From Serratia inhibens (GTDB lineage: Bacteria; Pseudomonadota; Gammaproteobacteria; Enterobacterales; Enterobacteriaceae): a stretch of 64,000 nucleotides of DNA. Below, one piece after another: positions 7,403-17,586 of the stretch. Every line of letters starts with the position of its first letter. Positions within the stretch are counted from its first letter, which is position 1. The notes beneath the pieces were generated by a model. It worked only from the letters and a program-made list of their open reading frames with translations, did no database searches and was not told the DNA's origin. The position numbers and the translations under genes are program-made. The stretch is taken from assembly GCF_003591175.1 (NCBI RefSeq), contig NZ_QYYG01000002.1:186001-250000 (forward strand), read 5' to 3'.

Positions 7403-8295
7403 ACCTGTTCTTCTTCCGTCGCCTGCTGCACCGGCGCTTTCACCCGGCGCACGTGCTCTTCCAGCTCAACGAAGGACGGTCGCTCGGTGGTGTACAGCGT
7501 TTTACGGCCGAATTCGACCGCAATCTGCGGTGCATAACCGTTCAGGCTCGACAGCAGCGTTACCTTGATGCACTGCATCATTTTGACGTTTTCCGCGCTT
7601 TTCTGCCGCAGCAGGGTCGCCAGCGGCGAGATGAAACCGTAGGCCAGCAAAATGCCGAGGAAAGTACCGACCATCGCGTTGGCGATAAGCGCCCCCAACT
7701 CGGCCGCCGGGCGATCGGCCGAGGCCAGCGCATGCACCACGCCCATTACCGCCGCCACAATGCCGAACGCCGGCAACGAGTCGCCGACCATCGCCAGGCT
7801 GCCTGCCGGTACCTCGCTTTCCTGTTCGAAGGTTTCGATCTCTTCATCCATCAGCGCTTCAATCTCAAACGCATTCATGTTGCCGCTCACCATCAGCCGT
7901 AAGTAATCGGTTATAAATTCCACCAGGGTGTTATCGGCAAGGATGCGGGGATAATTAGAGAAAATTTCACTTTCCTGCGGGTTATCGATATCGAACTCGA
8001 GGGACAGCATGCCCTGCTGACGGGATTTGGCCAGCAGCCGATACAGCAGCGCCATCAGATCCATATACAGATCCTTGCTGTACTTTGAACGACGCATCAG
8101 CTTGGGAATGGCGCGCAGGGTGGATTTTATCGCCTTACCGTTGTTACCTACGATAAAGGCGCCGATGCCTGCACCGCCGATAATCAAAAACTCCGCCGGT
8201 TGATAAAGCGCACCGAGATGTCCCCCCACAATCAGGTACCCGCCAAAGACCGCACCCAATACCACGAGATAACCCAAAATAACTAACACACGCAT
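7399..8295 (-). CDS. motA: flagellar motor stator protein MotA
   Basis: A 298-residue MotA with four membrane helices (about 2-22, 34-52, 170-190, 200-222) and a large cytoplasmic loop that contacts FliG. It aligns with E. coli MotA through nearly its whole length, including [28 protein letters not shown] and [29 protein letters not shown] in shortened form. The start matches the E. coli start plus one residue. It is the first gene of motAB-cheAW, 152 bases after flhC. Confidence 0.98.
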
Positions 8296-14488: not shown

Positions 14489-14921
14489 CTGTATTCTCCG
14501 CGGTACCACGGCCGGAAGCGGCGTGGAACGTGCTGCAAAGAGAAAACAATAGTACAGAACCCTCACACCCGAAGGACTATAAACGAGAGTTGCCTCGCAG
14601 ATCTCGGTCTTGGCGTGGCTGGGGTAATCCCGTATCGCTAAAGGTACGGGAGAGATATCACGCCTGACACAGAACGCGGGCGCGAGAGCCGCGAACAACG
14701 CAAATAAATAACAAGTCGAGCACGAACATTACAGATTAACTATACCGATTAACCTTACGAGTATTAATTAACGTTTAGACTTACCCTAACCAATAATATA
14801 AATAGCCTGCCAACTTAATTTAATAAAATAACACTTGATATGACGATTACGATGAGATAATAATTAATCACCTTACAGAGGCCTGTTTTAAAATAAATCA
14901 TATATTCAAAAGGAGTTGGTT
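14489..14921. other. AT-rich promoter region before the microcin candidate
   Basis: The right 230 bases are strongly AT-rich compared with kynA and umuC. A possible promoter for 14922 is TTGATA (14836-14841) with GATAAT about 15 bases later. No gene is seen. The base composition marks the left edge of an islet between kynA and umuC. Confidence 0.45.
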
Positions 14922-15272
14922 ATGGAAACAGTTGATGCGATTTGGTTAGACTCTATCGCCGGCGGCCGCGGTAATAATGGCGGCGATCGTACCGACAATG
15001 GCGGAAGAAATAAGGGTAGAAGTAGTTCCAACAACAAGAGTGGTTCAGGTAATTACTACGCCAACAATACCTCGGCAGACTGTATCAATGGGATGGGCGT
15101 TGGTGCGGCATTGGGCGTATTTGGTGGATTACCCGGTGTGGCCGCTGGATTGATTGGCGGTGCGATTACCGGAAAATGTTTCCAGGACACCAGTAAAGGC
15201 GGCGGCAACGTAGGAATGGGCAAAGGCGGCAACAAGTGCGGGTCAAGCGCTGGCGGCAGTTGTTCCTGGTAA
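14922..15272 (+). CDS. candidate class II microcin precursor with double-glycine leader
   Basis: A 116-residue precursor. The first 15 residues, METVDAIWLDSIAGG, match double-glycine leaders of exported microcins: same length as the microcin V leader (MRTLTLNELDSVSGG), with Leu9-Asp10-Ser11, a hydrophobic residue at 12 and Gly14-Gly15. The predicted mature 101 residues begin with a Gly/Asn/Arg/Ser-rich stretch. A hydrophobic Gly-zipper follows (GMGVGAALGVFGG, then LIGGAITG), flanked by cysteines, and the chain ends in a Gly/Ser/Cys tail with a terminal Trp. Four cysteines allow two disulfides. ATG 14922 follows AAAGGAG by seven bases; the in-frame TTG two codons earlier is less likely. The peptidase-ABC transporter such a peptide needs is not in the window. 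Assignment is by pattern, not by homology search. Confidence 0.7.
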   Translation: METVDAIWLDSIAGGRGNNGGDRTDNGGRNKGRSSSNNKSGSGNYYANNTSADCINGMGVGAALGVFGGLPGVAAGLIGGAITGKCFQDTSKGGGNVGMGKGGNKCGSSAGGSCSW

Positions 15273-15445
15273 GGGTTACCTCTAAAAAATTATTTTTATA
15301 TTTTTTGCCAGGTTCACTTTCGGCAAGTCTCCTATAGAGAGTTAAACTGCCAATCTTTAATTGAAACAACGCAAGCACCTGGGAATTCATTAATTAAAGG
15401 CGGCAGTTAACACCTGTCGCCTTATAAATTAACAAAGAGTTATAT

Positions 15446-15646
15446 ATGGACAAAATCATCAGGCCCATAATTATATTTTTCGCTATACTTTCCATCTCCC
15501 CTTTCCTTAGTGGTGCCGGAGTGATGGCCTCTGGCCTGGGGTTCTCCGCACCCGCGGGCCTATCCAAATTTATGGTTACCCTCGCCACCGGCTACTTTTT
15601 TGTTTCTTTATCCTTAAGGATCTATGAGTTCTTAAGAAAAAAGTAA
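15446..15646 (+). CDS. candidate immunity protein, small two-helix membrane protein
   Basis: A 66-residue very hydrophobic protein with two predicted membrane helices (about 5-30 and 42-60) and a basic C-terminus (EFLRKK). It has a fair ribosome site (AAAGAG, six bases before ATG). It lies 173 bases after the microcin candidate, on the same strand and in the same AT-rich islet. Immunity proteins of class II microcins are usually small inner-membrane proteins encoded beside the toxin, so this role is inferred from size, topology and position. I see no recognisable family. Confidence 0.55.
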   Translation: MDKIIRPIIIFFAILSISPFLSGAGVMASGLGFSAPAGLSKFMVTLATGYFFVSLSLRIYEFLRKK

Positions 15647-15714: not shown

Positions 15715-16983
15715 TCAGCCCATCCTGACCCTGAGAATATCGCTAAATTTAGTGGTATAGGCCGGCGATAGCATTTCGCGTTTCATCTGCCAGGGTTTGG
15801 CGATGCCCTGCCCGGCAAACCAGATGCGGCCGCGCCCTTCCCGGTTGAGCTTGTCCAGCGTCGCCATCAGTTGGCCGCTGTTGCGCCGTGGCGGGCAGTC
15901 GTCGAACAAGTCAATTTGCGCCATGGCGCCTGCGCTGAAATCCCCCAGTATTACGCCGCCTTTCAGGTAACGGTGCCCCTCCCGCCAGATGCTTTCCAGC
16001 GCACGCACCGCCATGGCGATAATATCGCGGCTGTCGTTGCTCGGCGTTTGCAACCGGGCGGTACCCAGATTGCTGTAGTAACCCTCGCCTGCGGAATGCG
16101 GGCTGGTCTTGATAAAGACCGACACGCTGCGGCAGTAGCGTTCGTCTTGCCGCAGTTTTTCCGCCGCGCGCTCCGCATAGCTGCAAATCGCCTCCCGCAT
16201 ATGCGGATAATGGGTCAACCGCTGGCCGAACGAGCGTGAACAGATGATCTGCTCTCTGGCTGCGGCCTCATCCTCCCATTGCAGGCAGGATTCCCCGCGC
16301 AACTCACGCACCGTGCGTTCCAGCACCACGCTGAAGGTTTTGCGTACCAGCCGGGTGTCGCAGTCCGCCAGTTGCAATGCGTTTTCAATCCCCATCGCAC
16401 GCAGTTGCCGGGTCAGTCGGCGGCCGACGCCCCACACTTCCTCTACCGGTATCAACGCCAGCAGCTTGCGTTGGCGGACAGGATCCGAAAGATCCACCAC
16501 ACCCCGGGTGCCTGGCCAACGCTTGGCTGCGTAATTGGCCAACTTGGCCAGCGTCTTGCTGGGCGCGATGCCCACGCCGACGGCCAAATGCGTCTCCTGT
16601 AAAATCCTTTGTTGCACCTGGCGACCAAACTGCGCCAGATCGGCACAGCGGTTAACGCCATCCAGCCACAGAAAGGCTTCGTCCAGCGAATAGATTTCTA
16701 CCGCCGGCGCCATCTCGTCCAGAATGCTCATCACCCGGTGGGACATATCGGCATACAGTGCGTAGTTGGAAGAGAACACCGCCACATTGCGGCGGCGCAT
16801 CTCCTCCTTGATCTTGAAATACGGCGCCCCCATCGGCACGCCCAGCATCTTGGCCTCGGCACTGCGGGCAATCACGCAACCATCGTTATTGGACAGCACT
16901 ATCACCGGCCGCCCCTTCAGATCCGGCCGAAAAACCGTCTCGCAGGAAGCATAAAAGCTGTTCACATCGACCAGGGCAAACAT
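15715..16983 (-). CDS. umuC: translesion DNA polymerase V catalytic subunit UmuC
   Basis: A 422-residue Y-family polymerase. The catalytic start FALVDVNSFYASCE and the YSLDEAFL motif carry the acidic residues, and IAPSKTLAKLAN and the C-terminal little-finger region follow. The start at 16983 gives the conserved N-terminus and has GGAG upstream; a longer frame reaches almost to the LexA box and would not be fully transcribed. Unusually, umuD is not beside it but 16 kb away (32860-33282). UmuC needs processed UmuD' to form Pol V, so the two must work in trans. Confidence 0.95.
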   Translation of the reverse strand: MFALVDVNSFYASCETVFRPDLKGRPVIVLSNNDGCVIARSAEAKMLGVPMGAPYFKIKEEMRRRNVAVFSSNYALYADMSHRVMSILDEMAPAVEIYSLDEAFLWLDGVNRCADLAQFGRQVQQRILQETHLAVGVGIAPSKTLAKLANYAAKRWPGTRGVVDLSDPVRQRKLLALIPVEEVWGVGRRLTRQLRAMGIENALQLADCDTRLVRKTFSVVLERTVRELRGESCLQWEDEAAAREQIICSRSFGQRLTHYPHMREAICSYAERAAEKLRQDERYCRSVSVFIKTSPHSAGEGYYSNLGTARLQTPSNDSRDIIAMAVRALESIWREGHRYLKGGVILGDFSAGAMAQIDLFDDCPPRRNSGQLMATLDKLNREGRGRIWFAGQGIAKPWQMKREMLSPAYTTKFSDILRVRMG

Positions 16984-17071
16984 CGTCAGACCGCTCCATA
17001 GTAAAGGCTTGGCATGATCGCATCGGGTTCTGGGCAACAGGGTTGATGTGTCTTCATAATGCATAACTTAA

Positions 17072-17087
17072 CTGTATATATATACAG
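17072..17087 (-). promoter_or_regulatory. LexA box of umuC
   Basis: CTGTATATATATACAG is a perfect LexA palindrome, about 90 bases upstream of the umuC start. It predicts SOS control of umuC. Confidence 0.92.
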
Positions 17088-17586
17088 CTAATGATAAACA
17101 AAAATCACCGCCCTGCAAGCAACTTTGCCGGCAGAATGCGGTGTTAATCGCTAAGGCAATCATTTTCTGTGAAATTTGACTGGCTGGCCCCCCCTGAGCC
17201 GAAAGCGCATTCCGCCCTACATGAATGCCCGGTTGGTATGCAGGCTTCGCTACAGACTCCCCCTAAACATGCAGTTCATCATAAAGGCATGCATAACATC
17301 ACAGCGTCATCATTAGCTATTCCCTTCCCCTATTTAGGAATATTTATACTTAACCTATCGATTATATTAATTAATGCCGCACTAAGGTTGCTCATCTGCA
17401 CTATACCCGTGCGAAATATCATTCATCAATCCCACCAAAATTTAATTTAAACGTATCTTTAATCTAAAAAAATAAAACATATCAGATTGTTAAATAACAA
17501 CTTTATTATTTGTTTTTTATTCTGGCACGCTTAATGCTCACACTGACATACCGACAGACACAACACTTATATCTTGGGAGATTTAA
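17088..17586. other. gap between umuC and MFS gene
   Basis: The left half is mixed and the last 150 bases are AT-rich and promoter-like. A 93-codon frame (17169-17450) lacks a ribosome site and protein features and is taken as chance. No other feature is seen. Confidence 0.5.

What the first reader, a model, noticed from the sequence alone, without database searches (positions are those of the whole stretch)
14922..15646. Candidate double-glycine microcin and its immunity gene in an AT-rich islet
The leader METVDAIWLDSIAGG has the length and residue pattern of microcin V-type leaders. The mature part has a Gly-zipper hydrophobic core, four cysteines and a Gly/Ser/Cys tail. A small two-helix membrane protein follows on the same strand. 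The pair sits between kynA and umuC in AT-rich DNA. I know no described microcin with this Cys-bounded Gly-zipper and GSSAGGSCSW end. No exporter is near, so it would use one encoded elsewhere.
Basis: partly seen in the sequence, partly recalled or inferred. Interest (0 to 1): 0.88.

Follow-up and report, generated by a model that had tools for sequence, protein, structure and literature searches.

The report
Serratia microcin with exporter elsewhere
A Serratia genome carries, in a small AT-rich insert, a gene for a probable secreted antibacterial peptide (a class II microcin) and a small membrane protein that may protect the producer; the kind is known, but this family has no model in the family libraries searched here and its exporter lies elsewhere in the genome.

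Summary
ORF 14922-15272 encodes a 116-aa precursor: 15-aa double-glycine leader, 101-aa mature part. It is the only leader-like ORF in the window. A two-helix membrane protein follows at 15446-15646. The host is a Serratia near S. plymuthica.

Relatives occur in 19 of 30 Serratia genomes; the membrane protein's family in 20 of 392 genomes of the wider family. Over 25 pairs the membrane protein's divergence tracks the hydrophobic core more than the tail (weaker contrast within the window's own subgroup): a toxin-immunity signature. The genome has three CvaB-type exporters elsewhere. One has a broken cis microcin; in six related genomes that exporter is the only one, no cis microcin was found, yet it stays under purifying selection. 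That suggests export in trans.

Serratia marcescens class II microcins were published in 2026 (PMC13101503). Verdict: new member of a known kind, unusual layout. No activity tested.

The parts
14835..14863 (+). Promoter-like TTGATA-N17-TAATAA upstream of the microcin gene
   Evidence: Same hexamers and spacing in L002, L003, L004, L005 and L098, not in most other relatives; consensus scan 10 of 12, but 5 sites found against 2.6 expected in the stretch, so not proof
14910..14915 (+). Ribosome-binding site AAGGAG, 6 nt before the ATG
   Evidence: Read directly; similar purine-rich sites in relatives
14922..15272 (+). Microcin precursor gene, 116 aa
14922..14966 (+). 15-aa double-glycine leader METVDAIWLDSIAGG (V -12, L -7, I -4)
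   Evidence: leader length 15 in 24 of 27 members parsed
14967..14990 (+). Family block RGNNGGDR just after the cleavage site
   Evidence: Alignment A1; kept in relatives with quite different cores
15081..15182 (+). Cys-bounded Gly-zipper hydrophobic core CINGMGVGAALGVFGGLPGVAAGLIGGAITGKCF
   Evidence: core divergence tracks that of the downstream protein
15183..15269 (+). Gly/Ser tail with a Cys pair, ending CSW; cysteine third from the end in 27 of 27 members parsed
15397..15423 (+). 10-bp hairpin AAGGCGGCAG-7-CTGTCGCCTT between the two genes
   Evidence: similar hairpins before the same immunity subtype in L009 and L020 and after the other immunity subtype in L003 and L092; z-score of the whole stretch only -1.58
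15446..15646 (+). Putative immunity protein, 66 aa, two helices (2-23, 37-65) joined by LSGAGV...FSAP
   Evidence: AlphaFold2 model mean pLDDT 72.5, pTM 0.48

Best explanation
A class II (IIa-like) microcin cassette. The precursor is made in the cytoplasm; a CvaB-type peptidase ABC exporter (PCAT) encoded elsewhere in the genome, with its HlyD-type adaptor and presumably TolC, cleaves after Gly15 and exports the 101-aa peptide. The tail with its terminal Cys loop probably binds an outer-membrane receptor on a related bacterium; the Cys-bounded Gly-zipper core then acts on the inner membrane or a protein in it. The 66-aa two-helix inner-membrane protein, its conserved loop presumably facing the periplasm, protects the producer. 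Shown by sequence: leader, family, linked membrane protein, core-immunity co-variation, exporters in trans. Inferred: cleavage, export by a given PCAT, receptor, killing, protection.
For: Only leader-like ORF in the window. 19 of 30 Serratia genomes have the family; all 19 have a C39 hit over 110 bits, against 3 of the other 11 (Fisher p 2.8e-5, or 0.0023 without the four genomes under 4 Mb; the 110-bit line was drawn after seeing the scores and relatedness is not corrected). Seven family members lie about 0.3-2.7 kb from a PCAT, facing it, two of them with an otherwise different core. 27 of 39 places were parsed for a partner: 27 of 27 have a hydrophobic 55-100-aa ORF 40-174 bp downstream, against 68 of 679 mechanical ORF ends; L037, complete but left out of that parse, showed none of 45-169 aa. 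Mantel over 25 pairs: immunity distance against core r 0.84, linker 0.77, tail 0.73, leader 0.31, host gene 0.27; core given tail 0.61, tail given core 0.13. Own genome: three CvaB-type PCATs with Cys, His and Asp motifs. The contig 1 exporter's cis microcin is broken here; in six genomes no cis microcin was found beside the orthologue, which has dN/dS 0.047-0.089 in four pairs. In G009 the orthologue of the window microcin has lost its core and the membrane protein gene is broken too.
Against: No Pfam, NCBIfam or PADLOC bacteriocin match for the window peptide; the nearest support is a relative, L043, matching Bacteriocin_IIc at E 3e-5, below its cut-off. Mature length 101 aa and 28.7% Gly lie just outside the ranges given for class II microcins (<100 aa; 12-26%; PMC11494933, passages). 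No exporter in cis. Within the window's own tail group (13 pairs) the core-immunity correlation is 0.64, and with the window and G019 pairs removed the tail also carries signal (tail given core 0.53, core given tail 0.67). The window's small protein is an outlier: core 0.81/0.78 similar to L003/L004 and 0.78 to L177, but immunity only 0.17/0.24/0.12, with a 173-bp gap and hairpin between the genes. No activity data.
Confidence: 0.83

Rival explanations
1. Microcin yes, but the 15446 protein is not its cognate immunity: the true partner was lost or replaced, and 15446 is a secondary (orphan) immunity protein against a neighbour's microcin.
For: Its subtype (IIRP..PFLSG) matches L006's second immunity gene (0.58), L020's third (0.56) and L009's (0.52), not the partners of the closest cores. 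L006 and L020 carry two and three immunity-type genes in a row. The gap holds a stretch 85% identical over 40 bases to the hairpin region after the first immunity gene in L092. Removing the window and G019 pairs raises the group's core-immunity correlation from 0.64 to 0.75.
Against: The pair is kept together in S. plymuthica with dN/dS 0.27; both genes are broken in G009; in L009 the same subtype is the first gene after a microcin; no other hydrophobic ORF of that size lies between. Immunity proteins also diverge fast among matching pairs: L003 and L177, cores 0.74 alike, have immunity 0.37.
Confidence: 0.3
2. Class IIb siderophore microcin: the Ser/Gly tail carries a siderophore added by modification enzymes.
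For: Tail GSSAGGSCSW is Ser/Gly rich; one HlyC-type acyltransferase gene exists in the genome.
Against: The tail ends C-S-W; 27 of 27 members parsed have Cys third from the end and end in W, R or I. The acyltransferase stretch (L162) gave no leader peptide in the scan used, and none of the five C39 places is on that contig. PMC13101503 reports that none of its 93 putative Serratia microcins has the canonical motif. Other modification enzymes were not searched for.
Confidence: 0.05
3. Cdz-like contact-dependent Gly-zipper protein that stays as aggregates on the producer's surface.
For: Gly-zipper core, leader peptide, type I exporter and small transmembrane immunity protein, as in the Caulobacter Cdz system (PMC5380434, passages).
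Against: Cdz uses two peptides encoded together with its exporter; here one leader-like ORF in the window and no exporter in cis. The mature part is hydrophilic overall (GRAVY -0.53), with a long polar linker and a conserved tail.
Confidence: 0.07
4. Decaying relic: gene intact but no longer produced or exported.
For: Exporter not in cis; four broken alleles of the family seen (L098, L132, L020, L048).
Against: dN/dS 0.18 with dS close to that of kynA (0.28 against 0.32); promoter-like and ribosome-binding sites shared with close relatives.
Confidence: 0.08

Closest known systems
Class II microcins of Serratia marcescens SM001-SM080 (Parker et al. 2026, PMC13101503; parts 1-5 of 8 of the text read)
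   Same: Same genus; double-glycine leader; non-IIb tails; several per genome; PCAT in all but 5 of 1,562 microcin-bearing assemblies; SM020 and SM064 encoded elsewhere than the PCAT cluster in strain SM39; adjacent immunity proteins; 17 shown active.
   Different: Other species here; the SM sequences are in supplements that I could not read, so identity with any SM clade is untested. A relative (L031, L052) lies in a record named S. marcescens MSU97, so members may well be among the SM set. The parts that I read do not describe this family's motif, its immunity family or exporters kept without a cis microcin.
Microcin V (CvaC/Cvi/CvaAB)
   Same: Leader type, Gly-rich hydrophobic core, Cys near the C-terminus (recalled), CvaB-type exporter, small membrane immunity protein.
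   Different: No Pfam MccV match for the window peptide; exporter not in cis; a direct sequence comparison with CvaC or Cvi was not made.
Pfam Bacteriocin_IIc (PF10439), double-glycine class II bacteriocins
   Same: A relative, L043, matches over leader and Gly-zipper at E 3e-5, below the family cut-off.
   Different: The window peptide itself gives no match; polar linker and Cys-loop tail.
Caulobacter Cdz system (PMC5380434, passages)
   Same: Gly-zipper peptide, type I export, small transmembrane immunity protein.
   Different: Two peptides with cis exporter, surface-bound; here one peptide, polar linker, Cys-bounded core.

Membership tests
Class II microcin | 15-18 aa leader ending GG/GA with hydrophobic residues at -4, -7, -12 | tested here: met
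   15 aa, GG, I -4, L -7, V -12; only such ORF in the window; criteria from PMC11494933 (passages)
Class II microcin | Gly content 12-26%, mature part under 100 aa and 10 kDa | tested here: inconclusive
   28.7% Gly, 101 aa, 9.61 kDa: just outside two of the three ranges
Class II microcin | Peptidase-containing ABC exporter and adaptor in the genome | tested here: met
   Five C39 hits; three are CvaB-type with C/H/D motifs. HlyD-type adaptor confirmed by profile for contig 1; adaptor-sized ORFs beside the other two not tested by profile
Class II microcin | Encoded near its PCAT | tested here: not met
   No C39 hit on the window's contig; 7 relatives are PCAT-linked, and PMC13101503 reports unlinked cases
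Class II microcin | Adjacent small inner-membrane immunity protein with two or more TM helices | tested here: met
   66 aa, hydrophobic, two predicted helices; location in the membrane inferred; cognacy uncertain
Class II microcin | Antibacterial activity and specific immunity | not testable with these tools
   Needs an experiment
Class IIb siderophore microcin | Serine/glycine-rich C-terminal siderophore motif and co-located modification genes | tested here: not met
   Ends CSW; flanking genes are kynA and umuC; lone HlyC-type gene on another contig
Class IIa microcin | No modification except disulfides | not testable with these tools
   Four cysteines are compatible; needs mass spectrometry
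MccV (PF17508) | Match above the Pfam cut-off | tested here: not met
   No match
Cdz contact-dependent system | Two adjacent Gly-zipper peptides with cis exporter | tested here: not met
   One leader-like ORF, no cis exporter

The most novel reading that the evidence does not exclude
Serratia microcin production is a split, mix-and-match network: an exporter that has lost its own microcin is kept by selection to serve several exporter-less microcin-immunity cassettes scattered at other sites; a common leader block is shared while core and immunity change together; and in the S. plymuthica lineage one cassette (this one) has exchanged its immunity partner for a different subtype. (Odds lowered from 0.45 to 0.42 on rechecking, because within the window's subgroup the tail also tracks immunity.)
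Probability: 0.42. Interest if true: 0.6.

Novelty: new member of a known kind. Interest (0 to 1): 0.45.

Why it matters
It gives a family-level handle on class II microcins: a set with shared leader, block GNNGGDR, Gly-zipper core and C-x-W/R end, and an immunity family that a profile can find across genera, although a 2022 review (PMC10233263, passages) says that immunity proteins cannot be located by conserved sequence. It makes exporter sharing testable: genomes with one exporter and no microcin found beside it still carry intact microcins elsewhere. The apparent immunity swap is a natural test of what sets immunity specificity.

Tried and rejected
Family libraries: Pfam, NCBIfam and PADLOC gave nothing for the two window proteins beyond weak chance-like matches (Dsc3_C, YobH, HpaX). 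PDB by profile: nothing. Plasmid collection, E. coli genomes, viral contigs: no relative, so no sign of a known plasmid or phage. Rfam over the window at gathering thresholds: nothing. Terminator scan found none in 14.5-15.76 kb although the hairpin folds; its role is unknown. Remnant of a first immunity gene in the gap: no convincing match. Class IIb modification genes: one HlyC-type gene on another contig. Two broken alleles keep frame after losing the core and two do not, so I dropped the idea of a selected core-less form. Literature searches; a search for the block GNNGGDR inside words found no paper. Papers seen: PMC13101503, parts 1-5 of 8; passages only of PMC9746304, PMC13174018, PMC11494933, PMC10233263 and PMC5380434; the rest as search listings. 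Microcin structure was not predicted because the machine was busy.

Rows dropped or limited: alignment A1 holds 18 rows, several cut at one end because match limits were used (L008, L010, L015, L016, L019 and others). Of 39 places, 27 were parsed; L037 (complete, no ORF of 45-169 aa listed downstream), other unfetched places, partial and broken places were left out. Two of the 27 were dropped as near-identical before the Mantel test; the immunity protein of L009 was replaced by the first half of a fused ORF. Leader length of L046 was parsed as 13, probably a wrong start. The family-wide search scored at most 15 candidates a genome, so 20 of 392 is a lower bound.

Full report
What is there. The window lies on contig 12 of a 5.38-Mb, 29-contig genome. 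Its relatives are Serratia: the genome with a 91% identical orthologue (G019) has a contig of the same length as one of S. plymuthica NBRC 102599, which gave the same hit. Between kynA and umuC (both confirmed by NCBIfam) a stretch of lower GC (0.42-0.45) holds two same-strand ORFs: 116 aa at 14922-15272 and 66 aa at 15446-15646. The first starts 6 nt after AAGGAG and opens with a 15-aa leader that meets the published class II microcin criteria (for the criteria, for the test). No other ORF in the window meets them; shuffles give 0.3 per window, and none with both Gly >= 12% and a Shine-Dalgarno. The mature part is 101 aa, 9.61 kDa, pI 9.5, 28.7% Gly. Cys54 and Cys86 bound the Gly-zipper core; Cys106 and Cys114 lie in the tail.

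It is a family. A one-sequence search found it in 17 of 60 genomes, all of the same genus. A profile (A1) found 39 places in 19 of 30 Serratia genomes and matches in 6 of 394 genomes drawn from the order, of which only the window's own is intact over its full length. The parts behave differently. The leader and the block GNNGGDR directly after the cleavage site change little even where the core is quite different, although one branch has GNF.(D/N)(N/K)R instead. The tail has two main types, GGGNVGMGKGGNK..C...CS(W/R) and ..NSVNGQC(R/H)W, and cysteine is third from the end in 27 of 27 members parsed. The host genome has a second member on contig 23 with a RELTLDEM leader (that this is the usual microcin V-type leader is recalled).

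The downstream protein. Of the 39 places 27 were parsed: all 27 are followed within 40-174 bp by a 55-100-aa hydrophobic ORF; among 679 mechanical ORF ends in fetched loci 68 are. One more complete member, L037, had none in the listing. For the window's tail type these proteins form one family with invariant L21, G23, A35, P36, S40 over 17 sequences. AlphaFold2 gives two helices, 2-23 and 37-65, joined by the conserved loop (mean pLDDT 72.5, pTM 0.48). Basic residues near both ends suggest that the loop faces the periplasm (inference). The family occurs in 17 of 30 Serratia genomes, all among the 19 with the microcin, and in 20 of 392 genomes of the wider family, 14 of 154 genera (a lower bound). 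Two immunity-type genes, L144 and L150, have no microcin-like ORF listed upstream. I fetched 20 places outside Serratia: in 10 an upstream ORF ends near a cysteine; by eye 7 of these look like complete microcins (L168, L169, L171, L172, L174, L177, L184), 2 are partial (L167, L175) and 1 is not one (L186); in the other 10 nothing was recognised. L177 has a PCAT about 1.4 kb beyond its immunity gene.

Toxin and immunity co-vary. Over 25 dereplicated pairs, distance between downstream proteins correlates with core distance (r 0.84) more than with linker (0.77), tail (0.73), leader (0.31) or host kynA (0.27). Core given tail is 0.61, core given linker 0.61; tail given core 0.13, linker given core 0.39, leader given core 0.22. 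This is what a core-recognising immunity protein would give. Within the window's tail group the picture is less clean: 13 pairs give core r 0.64 and tail given core 0.12; without the window and G019 pairs core r is 0.75 but tail given core rises to 0.53.

The window pair is an exception. Its core is closest, outside G019, to L003, L004 and L177 (0.81, 0.78, 0.78), but its small protein is 0.17, 0.24 and 0.12 similar to theirs. It resembles instead L006's second immunity gene (0.58), L020's third (0.56) and L009's (0.52). L003 and L177 themselves share only 0.37 in immunity, so some of the gap is fast divergence. Between the window's genes lie 173 bp with a 10-bp hairpin; similar hairpins stand before the same subtype in L009 and L020 and after the other subtype in L003 and L092; a different hairpin stands before L006's second gene. 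The simplest story is an ancestral microcin, immunity 1, hairpin, immunity 2 order that lost one or the other gene (inference). Against calling 15446 a bystander: it is conserved with the microcin in S. plymuthica (dN/dS 0.27), and in G009 both genes are broken at this same site. In three other broken microcin alleles (L020, L048, L132) the immunity gene is intact.

Export. The genome has five C39 peptidase hits. Three belong to CvaB-type exporters with Cys, His and Asp motifs, on contigs 24, 28 and 1; an HlyD-type adaptor is confirmed beside the one on contig 1 and adaptor-sized ORFs stand beside the other two. The first two have their own double-glycine peptides. The contig 1 exporter's cis microcin is broken here, the damage running into its immunity gene, whereas G019 (L157, S. 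plymuthica) and G007 (L154, S. proteamaculans) keep an intact one. In six other genomes (L152, L153, L155, L156, L159, L160) the orthologous exporter, 83-84% identical, is the only C39 hit of the genome; no cis microcin was found there by leader scan or tblastn, yet the exporter has no stop, keeps its motifs, and has dN/dS 0.047-0.089 in four pairs among five of the six. The adaptor ORF is 422 aa in L152 and L153 but 387 aa in L155; I did not look at it in the other three. Each of the six genomes has at least two family places elsewhere, weak or partial ones counted. All 19 family-bearing genomes have a C39 hit above 110 bits, against 3 of the other 11 (p 2.8e-5, or 0.0023 without the four genomes under 4 Mb; the line was drawn after seeing the scores, and relatedness is not corrected). 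Seven family members sit beside a PCAT of about 58-60% identity to the one on contig 28; in the other 27 stretches of 9.7-18 kb tested no PCAT was found. I infer that the window peptide is exported in trans, the contig 1 exporter being the best candidate; nothing here shows which exporter it uses.

History of the site. G019 has the same cassette at the same site; microcin dS (0.28) is close to that of kynA (0.32), so it seems to have descended with the chromosome there. In five genomes including G010 and G013 an intact cassette lies about 10 kb from kynA (G001 has a remnant there), after a peptidase-like gene (family match below cut-offs). In L092 a Dyp-type peroxidase gene follows directly; in L091 three further genes intervene. 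In two genomes without the family and without a C39 hit (G015, G026) the gap between those two genes is about 205 bp. I saw no transposase or plasmid link, but searched for one only through.

What is known. Class II microcins of S. marcescens were described in 2026 (PMC13101503; I read parts 1-5 of 8 of the text, not the supplements): 93 putative, 40 tested, 17 active, found in 96% of assemblies, sometimes away from the PCAT, whose specificity 'remains to be determined'. The kind is therefore known, and members of this family may well be in that set (a relative lies in S. marcescens MSU97). I found no description of this family's motif, of its immunity family or of exporters kept without a cis microcin in the searches named, which cover open-licence papers only.

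Verdict. New member of a known kind; antibacterial activity, cleavage, receptor, target and immunity are untested inferences.

Noticed in passing
L026 (G000 contig 24), 8138-12207: A CvaB-type exporter with an adaptor-sized ORF and two further double-glycine peptides (107 aa, weak Pfam MccV match E 0.0015, below cut-off; and 69 aa): another microcin-like locus of this genome.
   Followed up: partly
L027 (G000 contig 28), 7497-11872: A second exporter locus with a 99-aa double-glycine peptide and, on the other side of the exporter, a 60-aa one with proline/cysteine repeats.
   Followed up: no
L029 (G000 contig 29), 7111-11366: A different C39 ABC exporter (708 aa) after a 102-aa peptide with an IIGG motif and two further proteins (232 and 316 aa); may be another peptide-export system.
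   Followed up: no
L158 (G009), 7671-8276: Two extremely Gly-rich double-glycine peptides with many GGN repeats, both beside a PCAT-adaptor pair.
   Followed up: no
L006, L009, L020: Two or three immunity-type genes in a row, one pair fused in a single ORF (L009); in L020 they follow a microcin gene that lost its core.
   Followed up: partly
L144, L150: Immunity-type genes with no microcin-like ORF listed upstream: apparent orphan immunity.
   Followed up: partly
window 15715-17586: UmuC ORF with no ORF of umuD size listed beside it on that strand, followed by about 500 bp of AT-rich DNA (GC 0.39-0.40) without a clear gene.
   Followed up: no
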